Of a stretch of 64,000 bases of DNA, positions 34,319 to 39,469 are shown in pieces. This DNA comes from Hawksworthiomyces lignivorus (lineage: Eukaryota > Ascomycota > Sordariomycetes > Ophiostomatales > Ophiostomataceae), in assembly GCA_002917075.1 (NCBI GenBank), contig NTMA01000001.1:806001-870000 (forward strand), given 5' to 3'. The notes beneath the pieces were generated by a model. The model worked only from the letters and a program-made list of their open reading frames with translations. It made no database searches and was not told the origin of the DNA. The number at the start of each line of letters is the position of its first letter. Positions within the stretch are counted from its first letter, which is position 1. The position numbers and the translations under genes were made by a program.

Positions 34319-35006
34319 TTAAGCCTGGGCATCCGTGCTAATGTGGAAAGTCCAGGCTTCATCATCTTGGCCACGCTTGCTAGGTGTTTTGTCGGCCCCA
34401 TCTGTGCTGATGTGAAAAGTCCAGGCCTCGTCGTCCTGACCACGCTTGCTAGGTGTTTTGCCGGCCTCGTCTGTGCTGATGTGAAAAGTCCAGGCCTCGT
34501 CGTCCTGACCACGCTTGCTAGGTGTTTTGCCGGCCTCGTCTGTGCTGATGTGAAAAGTCCAGGCCTCGTCGTCCTGACCACGCTTGCTAGGTGTTTTGCC
34601 GGCCTCGTCTGTGCTGATGTGAAAAGTCCAGGCCTCGTCGTCCAGGCCACGCTTGCTAGGTGTCCCATTGGCCCCATCTGTGCTAATGTGGAAAGTCCAA
34701 GCTTCGTCGTCCTGACCACGCTTGCTAGGTGTTTTGTCGGCCTCGTCTGTGCTAATGTGGAAAGTCCAGGCTTCGTCGTCCTGGCCACGCTTGCTAGGTG
34801 TTTTGTCGGCCCCATCTGTGCTGATGTGAAAAGTCCAAGCTTCGTCGTCCTGACCACGCTTGCTAGGTGTTTTGCCGGCCTCGTCTGTGCTAATGTGGAA
34901 AGTCCAGGCCTCGTCGTCTTGGCCACGCTTGCTAGGTGTCCCATTGGCCCCATCTGTGCTAATGTGGAAAGTCCAAGCTTCGTCTTCCTGGCCTCGTTTA
35001 TCCGCA
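34319..35006 (-). repeat. 69-bp tandem repeat array, ten units
   Basis: Ten copies of a 69-bp unit inside the precursor gene (last unit 54 bp including the stop codon). The first unit begins near 35006. Copies differ at only a few positions, mostly in the linker before the Lys-Arg codons. Near-identity, including silent sites, suggests recent expansion or gene-conversion homogenisation. Because 69 is a multiple of three, other frames on both strands also stay open; these are by-products. Confidence 0.95.
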
Positions 35007-35211
35007 GGTGAGCGCGTGCTGGACATCAAGGCTTCACCTGCTTCAGTCCGGATTTCCTTCATGCCAGTATCTACTGGGGCTAAATGATTTAGCTCATGTG
35101 CGATGTGGCTAGTTTTATATGTGTACTAGTTTCATACGTACCAGAAGCAGGAAGAGCATGCACCCCAAGGGCGACAGCAGACATCAGATAGACTAGATTA
35201 GCGACATGCAT
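34319..35211 (-). CDS. Kex2-processed multi-repeat RiPP precursor (dikaritin-type candidate)
   Basis: Exons 35211-35142 and 35079-34319 (minus; 61-nt intron, donor GTACGT, acceptor TTTAG) give 276 residues. Residues 1-19 form a signal peptide (hydrophobic core after MHVANLVY, ending VHA). A pro-region runs to Lys51-Arg52. Then come ten tandem units starting at residue 53: nine of 23 residues ending SKR, and a last one of 17 ending AQA at the stop. Each unit reads G(Q/L)(D/E)DEAWTFHISTD, then a variable (G/E)A(N/G/D)(G/K)TP, or AQA in the last. This layout (secretory leader, identical cores, KR spacers) is that of ustiloxin, asperipin and epichloecyclin precursors. The invariant segment around AWTFH is the likely core. 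No Tyr occurs in the repeats. The two DUF3328-type genes that follow support this role. The product is unknown. A secreted repeat protein of another kind is the alternative. Confidence 0.88.
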
Positions 35212-36612
35212 GGTGACTGAGTTAAAAATGAGACTGAAGAATTTCGATGAAGTCGAAAGCGTTGGAATTGAAGTGAACTGTGAAAGCGAACTGTGAGGCG
35301 ATTGCATTGATGATGCTGGTAAATTAAGTTCGAGAAAGAGGCCATGGTCTGTCCCTTTTAATACTCGCTTTGTTTTCCACTTCATCGTGGGTACACTTGA
35401 GCCATCATCACCGTCCGTAGTATTTTCAACTACATGTACCTAGAATAGCTATTATCTACAAAGTTAGGATGGCACTTTCCTAACTAAGTATGTAAGAGGT
35501 GATTACGACCTTTTACAATGACGTGTCATCAACTCTTTCCGAATACAGCTATAGTACGGTCATCGCTATGTATTTCGTCGTGGTCATCGATAGTTCTGCC
35601 AATGTTAATCGTAAAGGAGCTCGACAAGAACTGTGAAAGCCAGACATTTTTGCAAGTGATTCAAGATTGGTTACCAGAATTGGTACGGAGCAGTATCGGT
35701 GAGACTAAAAATAACAAGGTGTGAATGCCCGGTAAGGTCTGCGGCGTTAGTGGGACAGACCATGGAGAAAATTAAAATCGACCAAAAAAAAAAAAAAAAT
35801 TGGTCCATGTCCACTGATATCAATAAGAAAGGAAGGTCTTCCTATTTTCTCATACCTAATATATGTAGTTGGGGCTACAAATTTGGTAAGAAGGTAATAT
35901 ATATGCAGTAGGAGTCCTGTTGGGAGGCGCAGGCATAGAAGGCGCATGCAGAAAAGGCGTCCGCTGCCTCTGTAGGGCCTTTTCAAACAGAGACACTCCT
36001 CGACAAACCATGTACTTAAATCGATGTAGCTAGAAATAATAGTGTAAATTACATATTTCTTTCTGTTGGAACATTCTCTGAAGCTCATGCAGCCGAAAGG
36101 CGATGCGGTCATCTGCGTACGCACGGGTTATATCGCTAATCTATCGAAACTCGCAATCAGCTATTCAAGCTTTGGATAACAGAGCTTACATGTAATTTGA
36201 AAATGACTATCTCACTTCGGAAGAAGATAGCACGAAGATGGAAGGTTTTGCATCAGGGTATTTTCAAGTCTGACGCAAATCATGCGCAAAATCAATGCTT
36301 ATAGACAAGTGATAAAAATGTCTCATCGTAATGCTTTGAATAGAAGGTGACATATCCTAAGCCATGACCATAGCTTGGCAGCGTATGCAAACGTGCCGCT
36401 ACCCAGATAAAAATTTCGATAGGAAGAAAGGTTATGAGTTGAAGTTCATGGCATCTCTAGGTTCTGTCAGTTTTCTTTCAACAATATCCCATTCCACGAG
36501 CTGTAAGGCCGTTTCTTCGGGGTTCTCACTCTGAAAAAGCATTGTTTCTTTTCATCAAATTTTAACAGCTTGACCATTTCTAAACCACATCTCTATCATC
36601 TTCATATTCAGC
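35212..36612. other. Divergent promoter region between RiPP precursor and UstYa-like gene
   Basis: 1.4 kb with no supported gene. Contains a poly-A run near 35785-35800. Small open frames (for example 35747-36124, minus) have no recognisable features. Shared regulation of the two divergent genes is plausible. Confidence 0.5.
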
Positions 36613-37759: not shown

Positions 37760-38734
37760 GCATTGTTGGGAAGTCAATGTGATGAACAGATTCTTGTATG
37801 GTGAATACAATTCGGATATTATAAATCTATGTGCACACTAGGATAGCTAAAATGCTCAACCACATTAATCATTAATGAAGTAACAGAGCTCTAACAATCA
37901 CAAAACAAATCATTCCTCTCTCTGTCCATGTTTATTGTAGTCTCCGGGTTTTATGAAGTGCAGAATAGAAAATAATAAAATGAATCTGGGTTTCAATTGC
38001 ACAGGGAATCATTGTAGCTGTAGAGATACGAATTTCCAGGGACGTATGAATAATAAAAATACAACCAACAAGAAGATGGGCGGCGAGGTATAACCAACAC
38101 CGTCAAATATGTATGTGCCACAACACCATACCGAGAAGGTAGCTAAGCCAGTCAAAACAATATATGCGGCGCAACGACTGGAATCAAATCTGGAAGGCTG
38201 GCATAACAAAAAGACTATTCTTAGGCATGGCTAGATCGTGCCTGAACATCTGTGCCATTAATAGACACCTACTTCAAACAGACAAACTTAAGCAAATAAA
38301 GCTAGATACAGCCACTCGATTTTATCGTAGCAATTTTGCATTATTGACTAGGGCCGACAACGTTCACCAGATGCGGCAAGTGCCTTTTGGATTCCACAAA
38401 ATAAAAATGGCAGGCCTTATTACATGGTCTTATTATACCTAGATTGTATGATCTGATTCTTGGAATGCGGTTCTGGTTAACTACAGTTGGAACGTAGGAG
38501 CTGGTCAGCGGAGAATGAGGTTGAAAGAATTAATCATATAGCTTAAATACCACGACTGAGCCATCTTCTGAGAATTTGCTTCTCTATTTTCATCCTGCCC
38601 TTAGACTCGCTTTCTTTCTTATGCTGTTCATCTTCATCTTACCCTCATTATTGCATACAACGTTGATTATTGCAAACATTTCGAACTTGACATGAATAAT
38701 TGTTTTCTAACATTGAAGTATAGGGCAACGCAAA
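37760..38734. other. Intergenic between the two DUF3328-type genes
   Basis: No supported gene. A minus-strand open frame (38009-38209) has two hydrophobic stretches but no homology I recognise and no upstream exon. Confidence 0.45.
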
Positions 38735-39469
38735 ATGGACACAGGGTCAAAAATATCATTTGACACGGAGGAATCACAATCCGGTGAAGATACCGCCCTC
38801 AACGGCACGGCATACAACAGGCAAACATCAGGAGATTCTGGGATACGACGATTTTCAGCAAAGCGTCGGCAAAAGCACAAGCATTGTATAGCAGCTACTC
38901 TGGTACTTTTTGCTATTGGAATCGCACTGTCTCTTGTCCTACAGATTGTTATACTATCAAGGCCAAGCCCCGGCTTTCCACCCACGCATGTGTCAGACGT
39001 GTACAGGCCAGAGACTCTCAGCCCCGGCCTCAACCTGTGCGATTGCGGAAAAGATATGTACGAGGCGCAGACCAAAGGGTGCATCTACGACAGTCTCGCA
39101 GCTGCGTGGCTTCCGCCGTATTGCCGCGACGACGAACTCACGGAGGAGTTCGATCATGCCGGTCCCGGGCTAGATGGCACATGGTCGTATTTTGCAGATG
39201 AGCAGGGAAAAATCCCTATCAACAAGACCCAGGTCGCTGTCCTGGGAGATACGGAGGGGGGGTTTTGGTGTACACGAGAATGGCATGTTGCGCACTGCAT
39301 GTTTTACTGGGAGAAGTACTGGCGCATGAGAGAAACAGGAGCGGTGATGGAAAGGCGATTCGATTATCGAGAACATATCCGCCATTGTAGGCGGCTCGCA
39401 TTGGCAAAGCAACCAAACCATACAATGCTGATCAAGGTGAACGTGATGATGAATTCGAGACTCGTTTAA
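38735..39469 (+). CDS. Divergent UstY-like membrane protein (two HxxHC motifs)
   Basis: Single exon, 244 residues. A cytosolic N-terminus rich in charged residues (SAKRRQKHKH at 41-50) precedes one membrane helix at 51-73. The lumenal part has a CDCG...GCIYDSLAAAWLPPYC block (102-130) with several Cys, then HVAHC at 184-188 in WHVAHCMFYWEKY and HIRHC at 214-218. Two HxxHC motifs spaced 30 residues apart match the DUF3328 arrangement, but the Cys-rich block and the rest place it in a different branch found widely in fungi. A second oxidase acting on the repeat peptide is likely, as ustiloxin clusters carry two. I am less sure that this branch has peptide-cyclase activity. Confidence 0.72.
   Translation: MDTGSKISFDTEESQSGEDTALNGTAYNRQTSGDSGIRRFSAKRRQKHKHCIAATLVLFAIGIALSLVLQIVILSRPSPGFPPTHVSDVYRPETLSPGLNLCDCGKDMYEAQTKGCIYDSLAAAWLPPYCRDDELTEEFDHAGPGLDGTWSYFADEQGKIPINKTQVAVLGDTEGGFWCTREWHVAHCMFYWEKYWRMRETGAVMERRFDYREHIRHCRRLALAKQPNHTMLIKVNVMMNSRLV

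What the first reader, a model, noticed from the sequence alone, without database searches (positions are those of the whole stretch)
34319..39469. Candidate new dikaritin-type RiPP cluster: repeat precursor plus two HxxHC membrane oxidases
Seen directly: a spliced secretory precursor with ten near-identical KR-bounded units, a divergent DUF3328 gene with both HxxHC motifs intact, and a second HxxHC-pair membrane protein 1.0 kb beyond. Established: ustiloxin, phomopsin, asperipin-2a and epichloecyclin pathways pair exactly such a precursor with UstYa/UstYb-type proteins. Inference: these three genes form a peptide natural-product pathway whose repeat sequence I do not recognise.
Basis: partly seen in the sequence, partly recalled or inferred. 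Interest (0 to 1): 0.92.

Follow-up and report, generated by a model that had tools for sequence, protein, structure and literature searches.

The report
Fungal repeat-peptide cluster with paired oxidases
A fungal chromosome carries a gene for a probably secreted protein made of ten near-identical peptide units next to two genes for membrane enzymes of a probable copper type, so it probably makes a modified peptide natural product; the overall scheme is known, but the second enzyme belongs to a family that has no entry of its own in the Pfam catalogue searched.

Summary
On the minus strand (35211-34319) a predicted two-exon gene encodes 276 residues: a signal-peptide-like start and ten units, nine ending in KR. 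Divergent from it lies a UstYa/DUF3328 gene (36613-37720, PF11807, 158 bits), then a one-exon gene (38735-39469) with a membrane helix and two HxxHC motifs but no Pfam family. The core DEAWTFHISTD is invariant in protein while seven of its codons vary silently. In this genome 4 of 4 loci with both enzyme types carry a dibasic-bounded repeat precursor, against 1 of 8 read loci with UstYa alone. Best reading: a cluster that works like the dikaritin (ust-RiPS) pathways. Unusual: the core has no tyrosine, no tyrosinase match lies on the contig, and the partner oxidase belongs to a conserved Pfam-less family whose predicted core resembles UstYa. Expression, product and chemistry are untested, and the precursor was not found elsewhere. 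A new variant of a known kind; the partner family is the more interesting part.

The parts
34319..35211 (-). Repeat precursor gene (two predicted exons), 276 aa: signal-peptide-like N-terminus MHVANLVYLMSAVALGVHA, leader to ...SPADKR, ten units GQDDEAWTFHISTD(E/G)A(G/D/N)(K/G)TPSKR, last unit ends ...STDAQA-stop
35080..35141 (-). Predicted intron of the precursor (GTACGT...TAG, 62 nt)
   Evidence: predicted from sequence, no RNA data
34330..34990 (.). Tandem array, 69-bp unit, 9.6 copies
35212..36612 (.). 1.4-kb region between the divergent precursor and UstYa genes, a possible shared promoter (inference)
   Evidence: coordinates
36613..37720 (+). UstYa/DUF3328-family gene, five predicted exons (36613-36859, 36926-37081, 37134-37343, 37402-37480, 37531-37720), 293 aa, HGLHC (171-175) and HTEHC (203-207)
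   Evidence: (PF11807 158.4 bits, cut-off 25)
38735..39469 (+). Second HxxHC membrane protein, one exon, 244 aa, predicted membrane helix 39-75, HVAHC (184-188) and HIRHC (214-218), no Pfam family; conserved partner of the UstYa-type gene
28564..33397 (+). ABC transporter pieces (ABC_membrane and two ABC_tran matches; outer limits are ORF ends, so approximate) ending about 0.9 kb from the precursor; candidate exporter, membership of the cluster not shown
41079..43751 (-). ORF of a Zn2Cys6 transcription factor (Zn_clus + Fungal_trans), candidate regulator, membership of the cluster not shown

Best explanation
A ribosomal-peptide natural-product cluster that works like the ustiloxin/dikaritin (ust-RiPS) pathways. 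The precursor enters the secretory pathway (inferred from its N-terminus). Kex2 cuts after KR and releases about ten copies of a peptide of about 21 residues (inferred from the sites). The UstYa-type protein and its partner, each anchored by one helix and carrying two HxxHC motifs, act as copper-dependent oxidases on the invariant EAWTFHISTD segment, most likely forming a side-chain cross-link or a hydroxylation at Trp, Phe, His or Thr, since there is no Tyr (inferred). The partner is probably a divergent relative of the UstYa family, and most likely the two work together, perhaps as a hetero-oligomer (inferred). Export by the neighbouring ABC transporter and control by the Zn2Cys6 factor are possible but unsupported. 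Shown: gene anatomy, silent-only variation in the core, conserved linkage of the two enzyme genes, recurrence of the three-part set in this genome, matching predicted order of elements around the motifs.
For: Anatomy; silent-only variation in the core. PF11807 158 bits. Motif His and Cys kept in 75-78 of 78 partner-family hits and in 50-58 of 59 UstYa-type hits, most misses of the latter being gaps. Joined proteins in 5 of 59, two of them with all four motifs. A uniform scan for dibasic-bounded repeated 7-mers: 4 of 4 loci with UstYa plus partner family, 1 of 8 UstYa-only loci, 0 of 1 partner-only locus, 0 of 2 control stretches (Fisher one-sided p 0.010). Predicted folds: in both families strand, helix whose fourth residue begins the first HxxHC, helix with the second HxxHC, strand. 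CctR: DUF3328 as dimeric binuclear copper enzyme, HxxHC mutants inactive (PMC12435403, parts 1 and 2 of 3 read). DUF3328 genes are enriched at KEPs (PMC7329392, parts 1, 3, 4 of 8 and passages).
Against: No precursor homologue (only 7996 word-sharing candidates were scored), so the three-gene set is not shown in another genome. Linkage is partial: 38 of 53 named UstYa-type hits and 23 of 38 named partner hits have no listed counterpart on a contig of that length (listings are candidate-limited); of the 15 pairs, 7 have tags far apart, one pair is four apart and one has no tag shown, so adjacency is shown for 6. The joined proteins may be merged gene models; three of the five lack some motifs. 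14 of 59 UstYa-type hits have fewer than two HxxHC. The UstYa gene on C130, best match to P0001 outside the window, has neither partner gene nor repeat precursor in the 10 kb read. C159 has a partner-family gene with no PF11807 match and no precursor. Profile comparison of the two families without joined proteins: E 0.078 only. No Tyr, which 65.6% of repeats of DUF3328-linked KEPs contain (PMC7329392). The scan was written after the C142 candidate had been seen; stretches were 10-30 kb, the one on C139 ending 0.4 kb beyond its UstYa match; C166 and C167 were not read.
Confidence: 0.78

Rival explanations
1. A secreted linear Kex2-processed repeat protein (signal, surface or effector peptide) that happens to lie beside an oxidase pair serving another substrate.
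For: 6120 of 7878 KEPs have no DUF3328 gene within 15 genes (PMC7329392); the core lacks Tyr; no precursor homologue found.
Against: The nearest gene recognised on that side is the UstYa gene, divergent, 1.4 kb away. The same genome has three further loci with precursor + UstYa + partner family. DUF3328 gene counts peak next to KEP genes (PMC7329392).
Confidence: 0.13
2. An alpha-type mating pheromone precursor.
For: Signal-peptide-like start, KR-bounded repeats and a Trp-containing core are shared with alpha-pheromone precursors.
Against: The core lacks the Cys-containing W...GQ..W pheromone motif (motif recalled); no MF_alpha match for this precursor; only 3 of 216 putative fungal pheromone KEPs have DUF3328 genes near (PMC7329392).
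Confidence: 0.02
3. The third gene is not an oxidase but an accessory protein that delivers copper or electrons to the UstYa enzyme, its HxxHC motifs binding copper.
For: Huang et al. postulate such an accessory for CctR (PMC12435403, part 2 read); it is linked to, and sometimes joined with, UstYa-type proteins.
Against: It has the same two-motif, one-membrane-helix layout as the catalytic family, with the motif residues almost invariant; C159 has one without a PF11807 match on the contig.
Confidence: 0.2
4. The enzyme pair serves a non-ribosomal or polyketide pathway (as CctR and ApnU do) and the precursor is incidental.
For: UniRef labels of two UstYa-type hits begin 'Cyclochlorotine b...' (P0004, P0024, cut); DUF3328 also occurs in NRPS and PKS clusters (PMC12048977 passages).
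Against: Of 29 distinct window products or ORFs scanned in Pfam none was listed with an NRPS or PKS domain (not all ORFs were scanned, and 9 weaker families of one ABC ORF were not listed).
Confidence: 0.07

Closest known systems
Ustiloxin / phomopsin / asperipin-2a clusters (dikaritins, ust-RiPS)
   Same: Signal-peptide-like start, highly repeated Kex2-bounded units, DUF3328/UstYa gene next to the precursor.
   Different: Core has Trp, Phe and His but no Tyr; no tyrosinase match on the contig; one of the two HxxHC proteins falls outside PF11807; unit 23 aa against 13, 14 and 8 aa given for the known three (PMC7329392).
Kex2-processed repeat proteins (KEPs), including Tyr-less types with DUF3328
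   Same: Same precursor design; Umemura 2020 lists DUF3328-linked types without Y (G-3 and G-8 with HH, P-3 with W).
   Different: This core was not found in the text of the paper library (figures and supplements not covered), and no homologue was found.
DUF3328 copper enzymes CctR (hydroxylase) and ApnU (halogenase)
   Same: Two HxxHC motifs; in CctR one membrane helix and motif-bearing helices (PMC12435403).
   Different: Those act in a non-ribosomal peptide and the atpenin pathway; the third gene here does not reach the PF11807 threshold.
UstYa + UstYb pair of the ustiloxin cluster
   Same: Two such membrane proteins beside one precursor.
   Different: UstYa and UstYb are both described as DUF3328 proteins (PMC7329392, PMC12048977); the second protein here is not recognised by PF11807. 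It was not compared directly with UstYb.

Membership tests
Kex2-processed repeat protein (KEP) | N-terminal secretion signal | tested here: inconclusive
   Hydrophobic start with a VHA-LP junction read by eye; no signal-peptide predictor available
Kex2-processed repeat protein (KEP) | Repeated units bounded by dibasic Kex2 sites | tested here: met
   Ten units, nine ending in KR
Dikaritin / ust-RiPS cluster | DUF3328/UstYa gene with two HxxHC motifs near the precursor (class-defining enzyme in the later definition, PMC12048977) | tested here: met
   PF11807 158.4 bits; HGLHC and HTEHC; 1.4 kb from the precursor
Dikaritin / ust-RiPS cluster | Tyrosinase gene (original five-gene definition, PMC12048977 passage) | tested here: not met
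   PF00264 search of the genome: 23 matches listed, none on contig C1. By contrast C151:29548-30221 lies about 1.5 kb from the Tyr-rich precursor there
Dikaritin / ust-RiPS cluster | Methyltransferase and peptidase genes (original five-gene definition) | tested here: inconclusive
   None listed among 29 window products or ORFs scanned, but not all ORFs were scanned
Dikaritin / ust-RiPS cluster | Tyr in the core (as in ustiloxin, phomopsin, asperipin-2a) | tested here: not met
   No Y in any of the ten units
Dikaritin / ust-RiPS cluster | Oxidatively cyclised product | not testable with these tools
   Needs LC-MS
UstYa family PF11807 (third gene) | Match above the Pfam cut-off | tested here: not met
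   No family at E<=1; relative P0093 reaches 23.9 bits against a cut-off of 25
UstYa family PF11807 (third gene) | Two HxxHC motifs behind one membrane helix, on two helices | tested here: met
   Motifs conserved; model mean pLDDT 85
UstYa family PF11807 (third gene) | Sequence homology to UstYa-type proteins | tested here: inconclusive
   Profile-profile E 0.078 over the motif region; the strong score came from joined proteins in the alignment and is discarded
Binuclear copper enzyme | Copper bound by the HxxHC histidines | not testable with these tools
   Inferred from CctR (PMC12435403)

The most novel reading that the evidence does not exclude
The third gene founds an unnamed sister family of UstYa that is an obligate partner: the two proteins form a mixed dimer whose facing HxxHC helices make the copper centre, and this mixed enzyme cross-links Tyr-less peptides through Trp or His without help from a tyrosinase. 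Genome-mining rules built on PF11807 would then see only half of many fungal RiPP enzymes.
Probability: 0.25. Interest if true: 0.75.

Novelty: new variant of a known kind. Interest (0 to 1): 0.5.

Why it matters
If right, a conserved two-gene oxidase module (UstYa-type + Pfam-less partner, sometimes annotated as one protein) accompanies ribosomal peptide precursors, and the partner is missed by Pfam-based mining. It would offer a direct test of how DUF3328 copper centres are assembled (homo- or hetero-dimer) and whether they can cross-link Trp- or His-containing, Tyr-free peptides.

Tried and rejected
Precursor against 5.8 billion proteins: none at E<=1 among the 7996 best word-sharing candidates. 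Viral contig scan for the partner family: none confirmed. PDB sequence searches: nothing at E<=1 for the UstYa-type protein, its family profile or the partner-family profile. PDB fold searches with both models: nothing at E<=0.001. NCBIfam: no match for the third gene or P0001; matches listed for a paralogue and for the Zn2Cys6 ORF lie far below cut-off and are taken as chance. Pfam matches of this precursor (DIPSY, 19.7 bits, cut-off 25) and of the C151 and C136 precursors (including MF_alpha_N 13.4 bits, cut-off 22, for C136) are below cut-off and not used.

The first profile comparison of the two enzyme families (E 4.9e-38) is rejected: five joined proteins in alignment A2 carried the partner domain; without them E is 0.078. 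Alignments A1 and A2, used for the motif counts, hold all 78 and 59 hits, joined proteins included.

The looser repeat scans also flagged antisense frames of the same arrays, two GC-rich ORFs on C90 and weak cases on C151 and C128; the stricter scan did not keep the C90 ones, and these are not counted.

Considered and dropped: alpha-pheromone (no such motif); a non-coding array or another frame. Silent variation alone does not single out the frame (reverse frame 1 has the same 6/5 count), but that frame is broken by stops.

Paper searches that could have shown the partner family (listings and starts of abstracts; passages or parts of PMC7329392, PMC12435403, PMC12048977, PMC12871659) showed no description of it; most subscription papers are not held, so this is no proof of absence.
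Full report
What is there. On the minus strand a predicted two-exon gene (35211-34319) encodes 276 residues: a hydrophobic start (MHVANLVYLMSAVALGVHALPAS), a short leader ending SPADKR, and ten units of the type GQDDEAWTFHISTDEAGKTPSKR; nine end in KR, the tenth runs into the stop as ...STDAQA. Tandem Repeats Finder reports the array with a 69-bp unit, 9.6 copies. Twelve of 18 variable repeat positions are third codon positions in this frame. In residues 4-14 (DEAWTFHISTD) no residue changes while seven codons vary silently; residues 15, 17 and 18 change, and residues 2 and 3 change in one unit each. 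That fits selection on the core peptide, although gene conversion among units can also keep copies alike. One other frame (reverse 1) has the same silent/changing count but is broken by stops; the plus-strand frame open across the array has no ATG codon and no silently varying codon.

The two enzymes. Divergent from the precursor, 1.4 kb away, is a predicted five-exon gene (36613-37720) for a 293-aa protein with HGLHC and HTEHC motifs; it matches Pfam UstYa (PF11807) with 158.4 bits, cut-off 25. Its first intron would be GC-AG, which is rarer than GT-AG. One kilobase further is a one-exon gene (38735-39469), 244 aa, with HVAHC and HIRHC, no Pfam family at E<=1 and no NCBIfam match.

Conservation of the pair. 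The protein search gave 59 UstYa-type hits and 78 hits of the third gene's family; the named organisms are, as far as I recall their classification, all Pezizomycotina. Of 53 UstYa-type and 38 partner-family hits with NCBI names, 15 UstYa-type hits lie on a contig of exactly the same length, and from the same organism, as a partner hit (lengths typed). In 6 of the 15 the locus tags are consecutive, in one four apart, in seven far apart (JGI-style numbers, which as I recall need not follow position), and in one no tag is shown. So linkage is shown for 15 and adjacency for 6; 38 of 53 and 23 of 38 have no listed counterpart, in searches that score only word-sharing candidates. Five of 59 UstYa-type hits are single proteins with both domains (P0002, P0010, P0026, P0054, P0057); two of them carry all four HxxHC motifs, one three, one two and one none. 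They may be true fusions or merged gene models.

Is the third protein a UstYa relative? The motif residues are kept in 75-78 of 78 hits, and 73 of 78 hits carry two or more HxxHC motifs; of the UstYa-type hits 45 of 59 do. Profile comparison without joined proteins gives E 0.078 over the motif region. One relative, P0093, reaches 23.9 bits to PF11807, just under the cut-off. AlphaFold2 models (third protein mean pLDDT 85; UstYa-type homologue P0001 mean pLDDT 69) show the same order around the motifs: a long N-terminal helix, later a strand, a helix starting three residues before the first HxxHC, a second helix with the second HxxHC, a strand. The models were not superposed. No solved structure was found for either. 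I read it as a divergent relative, with moderate confidence.

The same set elsewhere in this genome. The window is G000:C1:806001-870000 of a 43.7-Mb assembly. Seven more matches of the partner family exist, on C142, C151 (three), C136 (two) and C159; six of the seven lie within about 8 kb of a PF11807 match. One scan for KR/RR/KK-bounded repeated 7-mers was positive at C1, C142, C151 and C136, that is 4 of 4 loci with both enzyme types; at 1 of 8 loci with UstYa alone (C128, a PHHAG repeat type; Umemura 2020 lists HH types with DUF3328); at 0 of 1 locus with the partner family alone (C159); and at 0 of 2 control stretches of the window. Fisher one-sided p is 0.010. The other precursors are C151:31749-32399 (VGYQYTTV units), C136:192442-192762 (EGVVGWADVS units) and C142 about 37020-36490 (two ISDLDYYKR units, predicted intron). 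The UstYa gene on C130, which gave the best match to P0001 outside the window, has neither partner nor precursor in the 10 kb read.

Tyrosine and tyrosinase. The window core has W, F, H, S and T but no Y. A genome search for PF00264 listed 23 matches, none on C1; C151 has two (29548-30221) beside its Tyr-rich precursor, and C130 one (71280-71996) beside its UstYa gene. This fits, without proving, that the window's product is formed without tyrosine oxidation. The C136 core (VVGWADV) is also Tyr-less, and its nearest listed tyrosinase match is about 45 kb away. The C142 units do contain Tyr, yet no tyrosinase match is listed on C142.

Mechanism. DUF3328 proteins are membrane-anchored binuclear copper enzymes on the evidence of CctR, which is dimeric, needs Cu and O2, and loses activity when the HxxHC residues are changed (PMC12435403, parts 1 and 2 of 3 read). 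ApnU is described as a copper-dependent halogenase with two HxxHC motifs (PMC12871659 passages). The most likely path here is secretion, Kex2 cleavage at KR, and copper-dependent oxidation of the core by the pair; the order of cleavage and oxidation is unknown. Whether the partner is itself catalytic, half of a mixed dimer, or a copper or electron donor is open; I favour joint action because of the linkage and the joined proteins.

Comparison with the known. Umemura counted 7878 KEPs, 1758 with DUF3328 genes nearby, 65.6% of whose repeats contain Y; types with HH or W and no Y are listed (PMC7329392; parts 1, 3, 4 and passages). So the window cluster is a new instance of a known design. The Pfam-less partner family is the new element; I found no description of it in the searches named under Tried and rejected.

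Neighbourhood. ABC transporter pieces (28564-33397) end about 0.9 kb before the precursor, and a Zn2Cys6 factor (41079-43751) lies beyond the third gene. Twenty-nine distinct window products or ORFs were scanned in Pfam; none was listed with a tyrosinase, NRPS or PKS domain, but not every ORF was scanned.

The confidence of the best explanation was lowered from 0.80 to 0.78, and two rivals were shifted by 0.01 each (linear peptide up, other pathway down), because adjacency of the pair is shown for only 6 of the 15 shared contigs.

Noticed in passing
G000 contig C151, L022:7749-8399 (-) with L022 and L023 around it: A fuller dikaritin-like cluster in the same genome: Tyr-rich VGYQYTTV repeat precursor, tyrosinase matches, UstYa matches, three partner-family genes, and a long ORF (40041 onward) that reads like a Zn2Cys6 transcription factor (not scanned in Pfam).
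   Followed up: partly
G000 contig C136, L026:4442-4762 (-): A second Tyr-less precursor with EGVVGWADVSKR units, near UstYa matches and between two partner-family genes.
   Followed up: partly
G000 contig C142, about 37020-36490 (-), in L020: Two-unit secreted precursor-like gene (ISDLDYYKR) with a predicted intron beside UstYa matches and a partner-family gene.
   Followed up: partly
G000 contig C128, 109542-111065 (-), in L032: Long repeat protein with EPHHAGKKTKNAKNAR units about 4 kb from a UstYa match, resembling the HH-type KEPs of Umemura 2020.
   Followed up: no
G000 contig C159, 587686-588585 (+): Partner-family gene with two HxxHC motifs but no PF11807 match on the contig and no repeat precursor in the 20 kb read.
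   Followed up: partly
G000 contig C130, 69517-71996: UstYa gene that gave the best match to P0001 outside the window, beside a tyrosinase match; no partner-family gene or repeat precursor seen in the 10 kb read.
   Followed up: partly
window 4967-10194 (-): Two flavin monooxygenase (FMO-like) stretches, about 24 kb from the cluster; relation to it unknown.
   Followed up: no
window 40327-40776 (+): Small ORF weakly like DUF4267 (13.3 bits, below the cut-off of 27.8) between the third gene and the transcription factor.
   Followed up: no
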